From Tethya wilhelma (lineage: Eukaryota > Porifera > Demospongiae > Tethyida > Tethyidae): a stretch of 64,000 bases of DNA. The notes under the pieces were generated by a model that saw only the letters and a program-made list of their open reading frames with translations, searched no databases and had not been told where the DNA came from. This document shows positions 13,859 to 47,218 of the stretch, piece after piece; positions within the stretch are counted from its first letter, which is position 1, and each line of letters opens with the position of its first letter. The position numbers were made by a program, and so were the translations under genes. The DNA lies in the NCBI GenBank assembly GCA_964030475.1, contig CAXIPT010000001.1:18495886-18559885 (forward strand), given 5' to 3'.

Positions 13859-15425
13859 TTAGCATTTCCTCCTTCTCTTCCTCCTGACTGGGCTGGGAGG
13901 GCTGTCCTCATCATCATGGCTGCTCACCTCTATCACCTCTCTCTTGGACCTCACCTCCTACAGAACAACACCAACAGGAGGAAGATGTGTCAACTTACAG
14001 CATTAGTTAAAAATAATTTATTATGTCATAGAAGTTAGGCTGTATGCAATCAAGGGAAGAGAAATGTATGCACAGAATTATTCTTGATCTGAGATTGAAT
14101 AGCAATTTGGTTGTGGGGACTTAACTAAATACCAGACCAAAACAATACATTATTTAAATCAACCAATAAAAGATCGTACACTCACAGGATACTTAATAAG
14201 GTTATGCTTCTTTCAAAATAATATTGAATGCACTCATAGCAGCTGGTCTATAGATGGAGAGGTGCTACTTACCTCTGTAGGGTCTCCTTCCTTGGAGACA
14301 GAGTAGCCCAGTGAACTGGGGTAGGTTGCCTTGGGAATGATGACATCATTGTCGGTGCTCTCTATAGCTGGCCTCTCTCTGGCTACTCTCTTCCTCCTCA
14401 CAATGGGAGCCTTCTTCTTGATGGGGGACTTGATGGGAGCCTTCTTCTTGATGGGGGCTCTCTTCTTACCAGCTGGGGAGGAGGAGGACATGAGGAGCCT
14501 TCTCTTGGGGGGAGACCTGCCACCACCACCATCAGGAACACCTCGCTGCAGACACACACACACACACAGACAGGGGCCTTACAGTAGCCTAGCCTTACAG
14601 TAGAACATTACGTTAACAATAATAAATGGCAACTAAAGCTGTCAACTGTCCCATTCTCTACCCGACATGGGACAACCTATGAGGCCCTGCAGTGACACAC
14701 CCCCACCAGTGGCACGCAGTGGTCGGCCCTCTTACCTTCCTCCCTGAGCTCATCCACTCAAGAGTACCTCTGCCATCGACCTTTGACCCCAGCTGTTTAG
14801 AGAAGAGCTCCTTCAGTTGTGTGTAGTCTGGTTCATCTTCGTAGCCCAGTCTGAAGACATGGCTCATGTAGCTCTCCAGGCAGCCAGGCACTGGGGTATC
14901 CTTGAAACAGTCTCTCATCAGCTGTTTCACGTTAGATCGGTAACTGCACAGAACACACACAGTCATCTTTAGAACAGCCCTCCCTCTCTCCCTCACTCCT
15001 GACTCACTGTATCTTGTCCCTGGCCACCTGCTCCTTGTCCTCCAGGTGGCCCTCCCAGGGCAGCCTGCCACATGCCCATTGCAACAGACAGTAGCCCAGG
15101 ATCTCAAGGTCACCCCTCCTGGATGGACCTACAGGAAGAGAAACCTCTCTCATCTCTCTCCCCCTACCCTACTAGCTAGCTCCTCACAGACTCCCTTGTG
15201 AGCATCAATGCTGGTGAACTCTATGGTCCCATCGTGGGTCCTCCGAGGGTCCTCCTTATATGGCTTGTGTCGTCCATCAGGGTTGAACCGGTAGGCCAGG
15301 CCATAGTCCACGAGGTACACACGATGACCAGTAGCAGGGGAGGGGCCAGTCAGGAGGTTGGAGCCTTTGATGTCAGCATGGACATAACTGGACTCATGTA
15401 AGAACTCCACAGCTTCTAACTACAG

Positions 15426-15487
<62 letters not shown>

Positions 15488-16227
15488 TGTGTGTGCCAGC
15501 AGTGTGTGTGTCCACTTACCAGTCTCAAGGCCAGGTAGCACACCGTCTCAATCCTAAACCTCCGTCCTGCTGCAGTGAACTTCTTCTCAATGTCCTCTCC
15601 AAACCGCTGCATGACTAGGAACCGGTATTTGAGCCCGCCATGATTGTGACTGCCCAGAGCAATGAACCTTGGGACAGGCAGGTAGTCCAGATGATAGGAG
15701 GAACACCACCTGTCAACTGAGAGACAGACACAGGAGGTGGATACACACTTTCATAGCTGCTATAAAATAGTAATATCTTCTCTTTAGAGCACAGTTACAT
15801 GCAGTTCTTACTTTGGTCTCCTTTAGCAGCTCTTGTGTAAAATGATATCTCTGTGAAGAGTGGTCCATTCTCATGAGGCTCCTAGTAGAGAGACAGTGAT
15901 TAATAACCCCACTAATTAGAGTTAACTCCTTCTACTTACAATCTTAATGACGTGGTCCTCCCCCTGGCCTGGCTCACTGCTGGAGTCTTGTCTGGTTGCG
16001 AGGTAGATCTCCCCAAAGCCTCCCTTACCCACGGAGCTGCCCAGCCTCCATTTCTTTTTGGCATTGTCAGTGAGTATCTCTCCCAGAGGGAGGGGAGGGG
16101 GCATCTTCCAGGCTGCCTTCTGCTTGGCCTTGGGTTTGGCAACTCTAGCAGCACCTCTAGCAGCAGGTTTGGAGCCTGCATCCCTCAGACTGGCCTTAGC
16201 AGGGCTCTTCTTCTTTCTTGGAGGCAT
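13859..16227 (-). CDS. VRK1: Vaccinia-related-kinase family Ser/Thr kinase (VRK1-type)
   Basis: A 495-aa protein is encoded by eight exons: 16227-15940, 15881-15812, 15716-15520, 15419-15188, 15128-15008, 14943-14736, 14545-14273 and 13957-13859. A basic N-terminal tail ([12 protein letters not shown]) precedes the kinase domain. The glycine loop is [15 protein letters not shown] and the catalytic loop is [12 protein letters not shown]. The VRK-specific DYG replaces DFG in [28 protein letters not shown] and [12 protein letters not shown] are VRK signatures. The tail has PIKKKAPI repeats, a basic run and an acidic/basic end RKRRRKC. VRK1 is a nuclear kinase that phosphorylates BAF and histone H3; a BAF gene lies 1.7 kb away. 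VRK1 and VRK2 cannot be separated safely by eye, but no C-terminal membrane anchor is seen, which favours VRK1. Confidence 0.93.
15427..15484. repeat. (GA)n on plus strand = (CT)n in sense of VRK
   Basis: The run lies just upstream, in sense, of the acceptor for exon 15419-15188. Confidence 0.95.
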
Positions 16228-16385
16228 CTTCTCCTGTAGGAGCACACCAACAGATACGTAGCTAGCTCGCTGGCTGAATTTCAAATTTGCCGGAAAAATC
16301 AAGACAAATATTTGTGACGACCTTTACCAACAGAAGATGGTAAACAACCCAAATTTGAAAGTCAGAGTGAAGTCCTGAGCGAGTG
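16228..16385. promoter_or_regulatory. Head-to-head region of VRK and BRMS1-like genes
   Basis: Only 158 bases separate the two start codons, so a bidirectional promoter is likely. Inferred from layout. Confidence 0.5.
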
Positions 16386-16742
16386 ATGCCGCTGAACGGA
16401 TCTCGAGGAGAAGCTTCTAAGATGAATGACGAGGAGGAGTCTTCCAATTCAGAAGGAGAGTCATCTTCATGTAAGGAAGATCATAATGAACTCTAGGTGT
16501 GCACTAATTAGAGTAATGCCCTCTGCTAGATGATGATGAAGAGTCTGAGCGTAGGAAGGTGGACTGCCTCGATGACATGCAGTATTTGGAGCAGCAGTTC
16601 TCAGACCTCAAGGAACAGTGAGTTATGGGGGCACAGCTTCTGGGCCATTGTTGAAGAGTCCATGCTTGTAGGTTGTATCAGGAGAAAGTGCAGGAGTTGG
16701 ACCACAAGATACAGCAAGTGAACAAAGGTACACCATCACAGT

Positions 16743-16773
<31 letters not shown>

Positions 16774-17707
16774 CAGCTGTCTCTCCTGGCCCACCAGGTG
16801 CTGCTGAGGAGCTGCTCCATCCTCAGGAGGACCTGAAGGTGACCCTCCACAAGCGCCTGGACAGAGCCCAGCTCTGCTACAACTGTAGAGTGAGTGGCAG
16901 AGCGTGGCATGCAGTGTAAAACATCATGACATCACTATGATGTAATCCCAGGTGGCAAGTGTTGAGAACAAGTATCTGGAGGAAGTTCAAAGTGCACAGC
17001 AGGATTATGAGGTACGTGCTAATGACCTGAGGTCCATGTTGGTCATGTTCCCCCCCCTCAGGAGCTGGTGAGGGTGAGCCGGCAGAGGATGATGGAGGAG
17101 GTGGAGGAGAGGATGAGGCGACTGCAGGAGGATGTTGTTGTGACACACCTAGCTCAAGGTACACACCCCCTACACTAGTGGTTGCCATGGTTACCAGTGG
17201 TCAACCCATTACAGAGAGTCTGTATCGGAGAAGGAGGTCAAAGGTCAGCCCATTTCAGTTGCTGGAGAAAAGGAAGAAGCCTGCTACTGTCTCTGATATC
17301 CTCACTAGTAGTTAACAGTGCTATACCTGTACCACTGTCAGTGTCAGTGCTTTTGTGTTGGCATGTGAAATATTTATAATGCTGCTCACTGTAGAGTCAG
17401 GCTCACTATATATTTGCTTTGAGTCTTGCTGCTGCTGCTAGTAGTATACAGTCATTGTTGGTTTCCTTGACTTGTGTCGTTGGTACGTCCTTGTGTTGTC
17501 CACATGCTGAGGGACATGGACATCATGGAGGACCTCAACGACATCAGGAAGGTGGGCTCCACAGTCCCTTACGATAACACTATTGTAGGCCTAATTCAGC
17601 ACACATGCACGTTATATTGTATAGGGGCGGGCAAACTTGGAAGTCAAATACAGAAAGCTGTTACGTACGTTCACAATAATAAAATGTCCCATTCTATGTC
17701 AGTGTAA
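16386..17707 (+). CDS. BRMS1: BRMS1/BRMS1L-like Sin3-HDAC complex subunit
   Basis: Eight exons: 16386-16470, 16530-16617, 16672-16727, 16798-16889, 16952-17011, 17062-17158, 17215-17295 and 17487-17707, giving 259 aa. The family (Sds3-like domain) scaffolds Sin3-HDAC corepressor complexes in the nucleus. An acidic N-terminus (NDEEESSNSEGESSS) leads into ESERRKVDCLDDMQYLEQQF and SDLKEQLYQEK, then a coiled coil. The block VSGPCVVHMLRDMDIMEDL matches the family only if exons 7 and 8 are joined across an AT-AC intron (17296-17486; see separate entry). The C-terminus after IRKV does not resemble vertebrate BRMS1L and is shorter, so a further 3' exon or a lineage-specific end are both possible. Confidence 0.85.
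17296..17486 (+). other. U12-type AT-AC intron in BRMS1-like gene
   Basis: The intron begins ATATCCTCAC, against the U12 AT-AC donor consensus ATATCCTT. It ends GGTAC. A branch-site match TTCCTTGAC (consensus TTCCTTRAC) lies at 17463-17471, with its A 16 bases from the 3' end. No GT-AG pair joins the flanking exons in frame: reading straight on gives a stop after DILTSS, and the downstream frame has a stop just upstream of the homologous block. Using AT-AC restores the conserved VSGP-VxHML continuity. Confidence 0.88.
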
Positions 17708-17909
17708 ATTGTTTTTCATTGCTCAAATTATGTATGTATACAGGTGAAAGGGGTCACACTAGTCTGAGATAACAGAAGAAACACATACCTGTCAACAATA
17801 TTGTTACATTCTACCTATACATGTGCAATAAACTATTCTATTATATAATACACTAGTCACAGTCAGCGCTGTGGTAGTCAGCATAATTTGGTGGAATGTC
17901 TTCACTAGC

Positions 17910-18182
17910 TCACAAGAAGGCTTGACACCACTCTCGAAGACAGTTATAACAATCGCTGGCTTGCTTCTTATTAGCGCCACACTCTTGCTTTAACCAATCG
18001 ACGAACAGTTCTTCGTTCTGCTTGAGTATGAGGAACTGCCCAAGTATTGTGTAAGCCTTGTCAAAGCCTTTGTCTGATAGTCTTTGCCCTAGGACTTCTC
18101 CAATGCCCGCCAACTCCGTCACCGCTTTATCTCCCATCGGCTCTGCAACGAAGTTGCGGTGCTTCTGACTTGTCGAGGACAT
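17910..18182 (-). CDS. BANF1: BANF1/BAF, barrier-to-autointegration factor
   Basis: A single-exon 90-aa protein (human 89). BAF is a small dimeric DNA-bridging protein that binds LEM-domain proteins and lamins and organises nuclear envelope reassembly. It begins [19 protein letters not shown], with the N-terminal Ser/Thr residues that VRK kinases phosphorylate in animals. It contains the helix-hairpin-helix [20 protein letters not shown] and [20 protein letters not shown], and ends in [13 protein letters not shown]. Length and every conserved block fit. It is on the same strand as the upstream PAPOL gene. Confidence 0.97.
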
Positions 18183-18525
18183 CTTGTATTCTCCAAAGAG
18201 CTGCTAGGACACAGGAGTGGCTTGTGAAAGAGGCTTTCTGACAGATATCAGTGCTAGCTATAGTTGCAAGGTCATTAAAAATGGCGCGAAGTGGGCGGGG
18301 CACACATTTGAAGTTTGTGCCAAAAAACTACGGATAATATACGGACAATAAGTGAACCAATGCATGGTCTCATAAAATTATATCAAATCGAAATAATTAT
18401 TAATAACATTAACGAGACATTATTACTGTTTTGTGAATGCCACATGCAGTGAGAGTTGAGTGCGTTAGGTGTCATACATAATGTGATGGTGTGTGTGTGT
18501 GTGTGTGAGTTTAGTCCGTGGGTTG
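18183..18525. other. Spacer between PAPOL 3' end and BANF1 5' end
   Basis: This spacer carries the BANF1 promoter and 5' UTR and the PAPOL 3' UTR, both read on the minus strand. A short (GT)n lies near 18489-18507. No coding region is seen. Confidence 0.5.
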
Positions 18526-45100: not shown

Positions 45101-47218
45101 ATTAATCCCTCTCTCTCTCTGTGCAGGCATCGTCCCCTCCAGTGGGAGTGGTTTTGAGGAGGTGGACCCAGAGGACTGTGTCACCATGGTGCAGCTGGCC
45201 ATTCAGAAGTGCCTGGAGAAGGAGGCTCTCTGCAATGAGTTCTACCTGCAGCTCATCAAGCAGACCACGGACCAACCTGACCCCAACGGGCGCATCAACA
45301 TTCAGAACTGGCGGTTCCTGTGTCTGGTGTGTGGTGTGGTGGTCCCCAGGAACAGAGTCATCCTCAACTACCTGCAGGCCCACCTCAGGAGGTGTGGCCT
45401 CGACTCACACACTGAGGAGGGCAAGTTTGCACAGTTTGCAATGCAAGTACGTTCCATAGATCACTGCTGTGTTCACTGATATTGACACTGATATTGACAC
45501 TGATATTGACTGCTCTGATGTGGTCTGTCTCACAGTGTCTGTCAAGAACCCTCCAGACTAAGAACAGGAAGTACCCTCCTTCCTACAGGGAGGTACAGTG
45601 TGTCATTAGGAGGTGAGCCCTTCTCCTATACCATAGGGATGAGTCAATCAATGTGTGTGTGTTCTTTTCAGACGACCAATTCACGAACGGTTCTATTTCA
45701 TGGATGGCCAGTTCAGAGCCATAGAGTTTGACTCCTCAGCTACCACTCAGGAGGTAGACACAACACAAGAGTGCTGTCTTTGTCTGACATGAGTGGTTCA
45801 TGCTATCTCTTCTTGTTGTGAGCTCAGGTTGTGGAGGTGGTGAAGGATCGCATCGGTCTCCTGAAGAGTGCTCAGGGGTTCTCTCTCTTTGAGGTGTTTG
45901 GTCAGCTGGAGAGGAACATGCTCCCTGCGGAGAAGGTGGCTGACGCCATGTTCAAATGGGAGAAGTATGCCAGGAGTACCCACTCTCCAAAGATACTCAA
46001 GCTCACGTTCAAGGTAAGGCCCTCCACTGGCCAAAGATAACCCCTTCACTTCTGGTTGTGTCTTGAGTAGAAGCGGCTGTTCCTGAAGCCATTTATGAGC
46101 ATGAGTGACCCCGTGGAGTTCAACCTGCTCCTCCATCAGGCCATCGATGACATCGTCAGTGACAGGTTCCCTGTCACACCCTCGGAGGCTGTCTACCTGG
46201 CTGCACTCAGAGCTCAGGTCACCCTGGGCTCTTATACTGATGATAATGCCCTCGTGGACTATATGTAAGACCGGTCCATTATCCCAATGCGATCTCATAT
46301 ATTTATTATTGTCTTCTATTTCAACCAATTAGGACCATAATTGAAAGGTACATCCCCAAACCAATGCGTCAACGAGTCCGCCCTGAGGACATAGCCCGCA
46401 AGCACAAGGACTACTCTGACCTGTCTGAGTCCGAGTGCAACGAGGCCTACGTGTCCTTTGTGAGGCAATGGCCGCTCTATGGCTCTACCATCTTTGATGT
46501 GATCCAGGGTTACACCAGCACCCTGCCCAAGAACCTGTGGCTGGCCGTCAACCAGAATGGTATCCACATCCTGAAGAGACGGGACAAGGAGCCCCTCGTC
46601 ACCTACGACTACAAGAACATCGTCAACTATAGGTAAGACACAGACTAGCTTGTGACGATGATGATGTAATGATTACATCATTGATTTGTTTGGTATGTGC
46701 AGTCCGTCTCTGAAGAGTCTGATGATTGTGACTGAGAGTTTGACAAGAGGAACCAAGTTTGTCTTTAACACTAGTCAGGTATGATGTCATTATGACCTCA
46801 GCTAGTGACCTTATTATTATAGTGGTCGGCCATCACATGTCGTACATGTGTTGTGTGGCACACTTGGTCGTGTCAGGATTATCATGTTGGTCATGTAGTT
46901 GCATCATGTGGGTCAGGCCATTGCATCATGTGGGTCAGGCCATTGCATGTAGGCCTTGAGATCTGGTTTGGAAGTCAACTGGTATCTATAAATATACGAG
47001 TGGTATAATAATTTTTATTCTCTGCTCCAATGCCAGTAGTTCTACATAGTAGCTCAGTGGTAAGAGCACTCGACTAGAATTTGAAAGACCTGGGTTTGAA
47101 TCCCAGCTAGATCTTATCTGTTGACACCCCACAGCTAACAAATAGCAGAGAAACTATTATGCGTGTATGAGAAGTCATTCGCATGCACATTGTGGTGCTA
47201 TGACTATGCATGTATGAT

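What the first reader, a model, noticed from the sequence alone, without database searches (positions are those of the whole stretch)
17296..17486. U12-type AT-AC intron in a BRMS1-like gene
Seen: the donor is ATATCCTCAC, the branch site TTCCTTGAC lies at 17463-17471 and the acceptor is ...GGTAC, 16 bases after the branch A. Both reading frames break if GT-AG is forced. Joining at AT-AC restores the conserved BRMS1 block VSGP..VHML. Known: AT-AC introns with this donor and branch consensus are removed by the minor spliceosome. Inference: this animal has an active minor spliceosome and this gene depends on it.
Basis: partly seen in the sequence, partly recalled or inferred. Interest (0 to 1): 0.78.

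Follow-up and report, generated by a model that had tools for sequence, protein, structure and literature searches.

The report
AT-AC minor intron in BRMS1-like gene
A rare AT-AC intron does interrupt a BRMS1-type gene in what is probably a sponge, at a place where other animals seem to have one too; less expected, the small RNA that should help recognise such introns carries a change in its recognition letters in this genome.

Summary
Intron 17296-17486 starts ATATCCTCAC, has an exact TTCCTTGAC branch site at 17463-17471 and ends GGTAC, 16 nt after the branch A. Of 23 stop-free, frame-keeping junctions it fits BRMS1-family proteins best: 271.8 bits, against 208.2 for the best GT-AG junction and 212.7 for read-through. 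The motif alone is weak (0.17 per shuffled window); the protein join carries the case.

The position looks old: two Geodia barretti gene models break at the same codon and human BRMS1L is named as a minor-intron gene (PMC3728624). The genome has U11, U4atac, U6atac and CENATAC and six further candidate minor introns. U12 snRNA and PDCD7 were not found.

So the intron is an expected member of a known class. The surprise lies outside the window: the one U6atac gene found reads GCC instead of AAG at nt 12-14, in the donor-pairing stretch. The seven donors have +8 = C,C,T,G,C,C,T where the published consensus has T. A co-change is possible, but pairing counts do not favour it.

The parts
16386..17295 (+). 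Exons 1-7 of the BRMS1-like gene (16386-16470, 16530-16617, 16672-16727, 16798-16889, 16952-17011, 17062-17158, 17215-17295) and six GT-AG introns of 50-70 nt
   Evidence: Exon model with open frame; Sds3 domain in residues 42-169
17296..17486 (+). AT-AC minor (U12-type) intron, 191 nt, phase 1
   Evidence: Best of 23 junctions by profile score; termini and motifs
17296..17305 (+). Donor ATATCCTCAC; differs from the consensus ATATCCTTT at +8 and +9
   Evidence: consensus as printed in PMC6259924
17313..17315 (+). In-frame stop met if the intron is kept (after DILTSS)
17463..17471 (+). Branch site TTCCTTGAC, 9 of 9 to TTCCTTRAC; branch A at 17470
17485..17486 (+). AC acceptor, 16 nt after the branch A
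17487..17551 (+). Exon 8, G|PCVVHMLRDMDIMEDLNDIRK
17552..17653 (+). Putative GT-AG intron 8; 102 nt and open in frame, so it may be retained. The end of the protein is uncertain
   Evidence: open frame 17474-17707
17654..17707 (+). Putative last exon and stop

Best explanation
17296-17486 is an old, position-conserved minor (U12-type) intron of the AT-AC subtype in a sponge-like BRMS1/BRMS1L gene. By established knowledge of minor splicing, U11/U12 recognise donor and branch site, U6atac then replaces U11 at the donor, and CENATAC favours the AT-AN subtype. Removal joins VS to GP in phase 1; retention ends the protein after DILTSS. Shown here: the sequence features, the protein fit, the gene family, minor snRNA genes and other candidate minor introns. 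Inferred: that it is spliced in the animal, and by the minor spliceosome.
For: Motifs. Profile scores over 23 junctions (profile from 16 of 21 homologues, the five with broken or partial ends here left out). Six unnamed relatives, 53-62% identical, carry the block without a break. Geodia barretti model P0007 reads VTVN-DIQPVF, i.e. a phase-1 G followed by AT-ATH-CAR, and P0008 also breaks there. Human BRMS1L named as a minor-intron gene (passage of PMC3728624). U6atac, U11, U4atac over their cut-offs; CENATAC exons, a factor for AT-AN introns (PMC8280824 passages). Six other candidate minor introns.
Against: No RNA data. Motif alone expected 0.17 times per shuffled window. U12 snRNA not found; PDCD7 not found, all 3 candidates scored. 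The U6atac found has a changed donor-pairing stretch that pairs this donor less well than the usual form does. The Geodia evidence is from protein models, not DNA.
Confidence: 0.93

Rival explanations
1. The AT-AC intron is real but is removed by the major (U2) spliceosome, as some AT-AC introns are.
For: Major-spliceosome AT-AC introns exist (stated in PMC8280824); U12 snRNA was not found here.
Against: Exact U12-type branch site at 16 nt and a donor with ATATCCT; minor snRNA genes present.
Confidence: 0.04
2. The gene is truncated: exon 8 is no longer joined, and the protein ends after DILTSS.
For: Read-through is open to that stop; two Geodia models end or break there; the joined tail adds no Pfam score (Sds3 70.5 joined, 72.4 truncated).
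Against: Exon 8 still encodes the conserved block in frame; joining adds 59 bits to the family profile (271.8 against 212.7); six relatives keep the block in one reading frame.
Confidence: 0.03
3. About the U6atac change: GCC is an assembly error, an allele or a non-working copy, and a normal U6atac exists unseen; the donor variation is ordinary drift.
For: One copy, one assembly; only 46 of 6274 candidates were scored. All six donors compared form fewer pairs with this U6atac than with the usual one in the standard register, and none has a better duplex energy with it.
Against: The three changes are adjacent, in a 29-nt block otherwise identical to the consensus, in a full-length 111.8-bit match. 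The gene has a TATA box and the upstream ATATTCAT stretch of the U4atac gene and can pair with that U4atac (-32.7 kcal/mol). A 15-base U6atac pattern gave 2 exact places, only one of them U6atac; of the 75 places with 1 mismatch most were not read.
Confidence: 0.5

Closest known systems
Minor intron of human BRMS1L (PMC3728624, passage seen)
   Same: Orthologous family; a minor intron in the gene
   Different: Position and subtype of the human intron are not given in the passage and were not tested here
AT-AN (A-type) minor introns dependent on CENATAC (PMC8280824, passages seen)
   Same: AT-AC ends, U12-type donor and branch; CENATAC gene present in the genome
   Different: +8 and +9 of the donor are C and A instead of T and T
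U6atac snRNA (Rfam RF00619)
   Same: Full-length match, 111.8 bits, cut-off 33
   Different: nt 12-14 GCC instead of AAG, inside the stretch that pairs with the donor

Membership tests
U12-type AT-AC intron | Donor close to ATATCCTTT | tested here: met
   ATATCCTCAC: +1 to +7 match, +8 and +9 do not (consensus from PMC6259924)
U12-type AT-AC intron | Branch site TTCCTTRAC close to the 3' end | tested here: met
   9 of 9, A 16 nt from the end
U12-type AT-AC intron | AC acceptor that restores the conserved protein | tested here: met
   Best of 23 junctions
U12-type AT-AC intron | Same codon position in orthologues | tested here: inconclusive
   Geodia protein models break at this codon; no orthologue DNA was at hand; human gene named, position not given
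U12-type AT-AC intron | Junction seen in RNA, lost without U12/U6atac | not testable with these tools
   No reads held
Minor spliceosome in this genome | U11, U12, U4atac, U6atac snRNA genes | tested here: inconclusive
   Three found over cut-off; U12 not found (42 of 7623 candidates scored)
Minor spliceosome in this genome | Minor-spliceosome proteins | tested here: inconclusive
   CENATAC/CCDC84 found, four exon matches over cut-off; PDCD7 not found; others not searched
BRMS1/Sds3 family | PF08598 domain | tested here: met
   70.5 bits, cut-off 25.4; match to solved BRMS1 2xus at E 2.2e-06
U6atac snRNA | Full-length fit to RF00619 | tested here: met
   111.8 bits, positions 1-126
U6atac snRNA | Consensus letters AAG at nt 12-14 of the donor-pairing stretch | tested here: not met
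   GCC

The most novel reading that the evidence does not exclude
This lineage has rewritten the U6atac-donor helix: U6atac nt 12-14 changed from AAG to GCC while minor donors drifted from T to C at +8. In the standard register G12 can pair with C8. In a register with CC bulged out, UGAG (nt 9-12) would pair with CUCA (+6 to +9) and GA (15-16) with UC (+4, +5), which fits the BRMS1 donor over six pairs (my reading; not the duplex that the program returned). U11, whose 5' end is the usual one, may hold CCT in place.
Probability: 0.3. Interest if true: 0.75.

Novelty: new member of a known kind. Interest (0 to 1): 0.42.

Why it matters
The intron itself adds a probable sponge to the animals with a minor intron in BRMS1L and shows why automatic annotation can lose the end of this gene (two Geodia models). 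If the U6atac change is real and shared, sponges offer a natural test of how far the U6atac-donor helix can drift while U11 recognition stays fixed.

Tried and rejected
Whole-genome pattern for donor plus branch site (TATCCTTN{30,60}N{0,30}TTCCTTRAC): eight identical requests did not complete ('busy'). It would also have favoured T at +8. I went on with gene families.

U12 snRNA: the Rfam model gave no match in the genome. Both hits of a 15-base U12 pattern are not U12. Loci behind the snRNA promoter element gave U1, U2, U4 and U5, no U12; not all of the 341 promoter-like hits were fetched.

U6atac of relatives: pattern in genome contigs and viral contigs gave 0 each; these hold prokaryotes and viral contigs, so this says little. 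A megablast of 17000-18300 against phage records gave nothing.

Loci read in which I saw no convincing minor intron: L106, L108, L109, L113, L114, L116, L117, L120, L121. L119, an ERK-like copy, has a GTATGT donor at the same codon by my reading. A GTATCCGACC site in CENATAC (L030) was seen but not counted.

Papers: searches for BRMS1/BRMS1L with minor introns gave one paper, PMC3728624. Searches for sponges or Amphimedon with minor introns or U6atac listed nothing on a sponge U6atac or a sponge BRMS1L intron; 'not in print' means only these searches of this library.

Changes made on re-checking: the probability of the novel case is 0.30, lowered from 0.35, because the standard-register pair counts go against it and had been left out.

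Full report
Setting. The window lies in an unnamed assembly of 124.6 Mb in 204 contigs. The best-scoring named proteins for the gene come from the sponge Geodia barretti, at 40-41% identity, so the animal is probably a sponge. The gene runs on the + strand from 16386: seven exons with six GT-AG introns of 50-70 nt, then the claimed 191-nt AT-AC intron, exon 8, and a last exon that is uncertain because intron 8 is open in frame.

Check of the observation. Donor ATATCCTCAC, branch TTCCTTGAC at 17463-17471, and an AC acceptor 16 nt after the branch A are present. By motif alone this is weak: 0.17 such arrangements per shuffled window, at least one in 16 of 100 shuffles. By protein it is strong. 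I listed the GT-AG, GC-AG and AT-AC junctions from exon 7 into exon 8 that keep the frame open: 23 (8 GT-AG, 5 GC-AG, 10 AT-AC). They were scored with a profile of 16 of the 21 homologues; P0007, P0008, P0017, P0020 and P0021, broken or partial here, were left out. The claimed junction has 271.8 bits; the next, the same donor with an earlier AC, 256.9; read-through 212.7; the best GT-AG 208.2. Pfam's Sds3 model ends before this block and cannot tell joined from truncated (70.5 and 72.4 bits).

Homologues. The joined protein matches Sds3 and solved BRMS1. Six unnamed relatives (53-62% identity) carry GPC-I/V-Y/H-ML in one open frame. Two Geodia models fail exactly here: P0007 reads VTVN-DIQPVF, which implies a phase-1 G followed by AT-ATH-CAR, and P0008 breaks a few residues earlier. 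Acropora cervicornis P0021 skips the stretch that A. muricata P0011 has. These are protein records; their DNA was not at hand. Human BRMS1L is named among minor-intron genes (PMC3728624, passage).

Machinery. One match each to U6atac, U11 and U4atac, over the curated cut-offs. Their upstream stretches share ATATTCAT and an AAACCCA element; the form AAACCCACAAGTATTT also precedes U1, U2, U4 and U5 genes. U4atac and U6atac can pair (-32.7 kcal/mol). CENATAC, which serves AT-AN introns (PMC8280824, passages), is there. U12 and PDCD7 were not found.

Other minor introns. E2F, MAPK and voltage-gated channel genes are rich in minor introns (PMC6865273, abstract and passages; PMC6259924, passages). 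In the loci read I found six candidates that keep the frame: an E2F4/5-like gene, ATATCCTTTA; two p38-like kinases, GTATCCTGAC and GTATCCTCTG; an ERK-like kinase, GTATCCTCTT; a locus with an ion-channel match, GTATCCTTTT; and an unidentified gene beside an E2F match, ATATCCTCAC. Protein support differs: the E2F join passes its family cut-off (36.7 bits, cut-off 33.9), the kinase joins reach 27-28 bits against a cut-off of 31.7, and the last two joins match no family. Their branch sites match 7 to 9 of 9 positions, and the ERK one lies 24 nt from the end. Donors were screened on RTATC[CGT] or RTATC, not on +7 to +10. With BRMS1, +8 is C in 4 of 7, T in 2, G in 1.

U6atac. Its first 29 nt equal the family consensus except nt 12-14, GCC instead of AAG. 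U6atac must pair with the donor for activation (title of Incorvaia and Padgett 1998 in a reference list; the paper is not held; details recalled). For six donors (the channel one was not run) I counted pairs in the standard register, +4 to +10. This U6atac loses +6 and +7 in each; C at +8 gains a partner. In total it forms fewer pairs than the usual form for each of the six. Duplex energies, this against usual: BRMS1 and the unidentified gene -3.6 and -4.2, E2F -2.0 and -6.4, p38 -0.4 and -4.6, second p38 -4.7 and -4.7, ERK -5.1 and -5.2 kcal/mol. So the donors are not better matched to the changed U6atac; at most the loss is smaller where +8 is C. A register with CC bulged out would fit the BRMS1 donor over six pairs, but that is my reading. 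U11 keeps the usual 5' end. If T stood at +8 in 85% of minor donors (recalled figure), two or fewer of seven would have a probability near 0.001 (own arithmetic); the sample is small and three of the seven are MAPK relatives.

Verdict. The intron is a well-identified, ordinary member of an ancient class. The changed U6atac is the item worth following, and it needs reads and other sponges.

Noticed in passing
L005:1501-1628, - strand (G000 C1:10245543-10245670): Only U6atac gene found has GCC instead of AAG at nt 12-14 of the donor-pairing stretch.
   Followed up: partly
L036-L060, L073, L084 and other loci; e.g. G000 C3:11.4-12.0 Mb, C2:8.87-10.5 Mb, C6:2.17 Mb: The snRNA promoter element AAACCCACAAGTATTT (37 exact places; 341 with up to 2 mismatches against 161 for the reversed pattern) also precedes many short units without an Rfam name. 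60 of 96 distinct fetched units (up to 1 mismatch; the 96 include known snRNAs) have a T-run followed by GGAAG, Sm-site-like, and then a short hairpin (mean -9.25 kcal/mol against -3.44 for a stretch further down), with unrelated 5' arms. Possibly a family of Sm-type RNAs with hypervariable 5' ends.
   Followed up: partly
L119 (G000 C7:542400-544400): An ERK-like copy seems to have a GTATGT donor at the codon where the copy in L115 has GTATCC: a likely minor-to-major conversion (my reading).
   Followed up: partly
L030 about 2966, - strand: In the CENATAC gene a GTATCCGACC site lies a short way after a major-type donor, recalling the competing major/minor donors described for animal CENATAC.
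   Followed up: no
window 17910-18182 (-) and about 14300-16250 (-): Neighbours: a barrier-to-autointegration factor gene (PF02961, 156.4 bits) and a protein kinase gene, VRK-like by recall (one exon 26.4 bits to Pkinase, below its cut-off).
   Followed up: partly
window 47047-47109 (+): tRNA match of 45.6 bits in Rfam that ARAGORN, run in bacterial mode, did not call.
   Followed up: no
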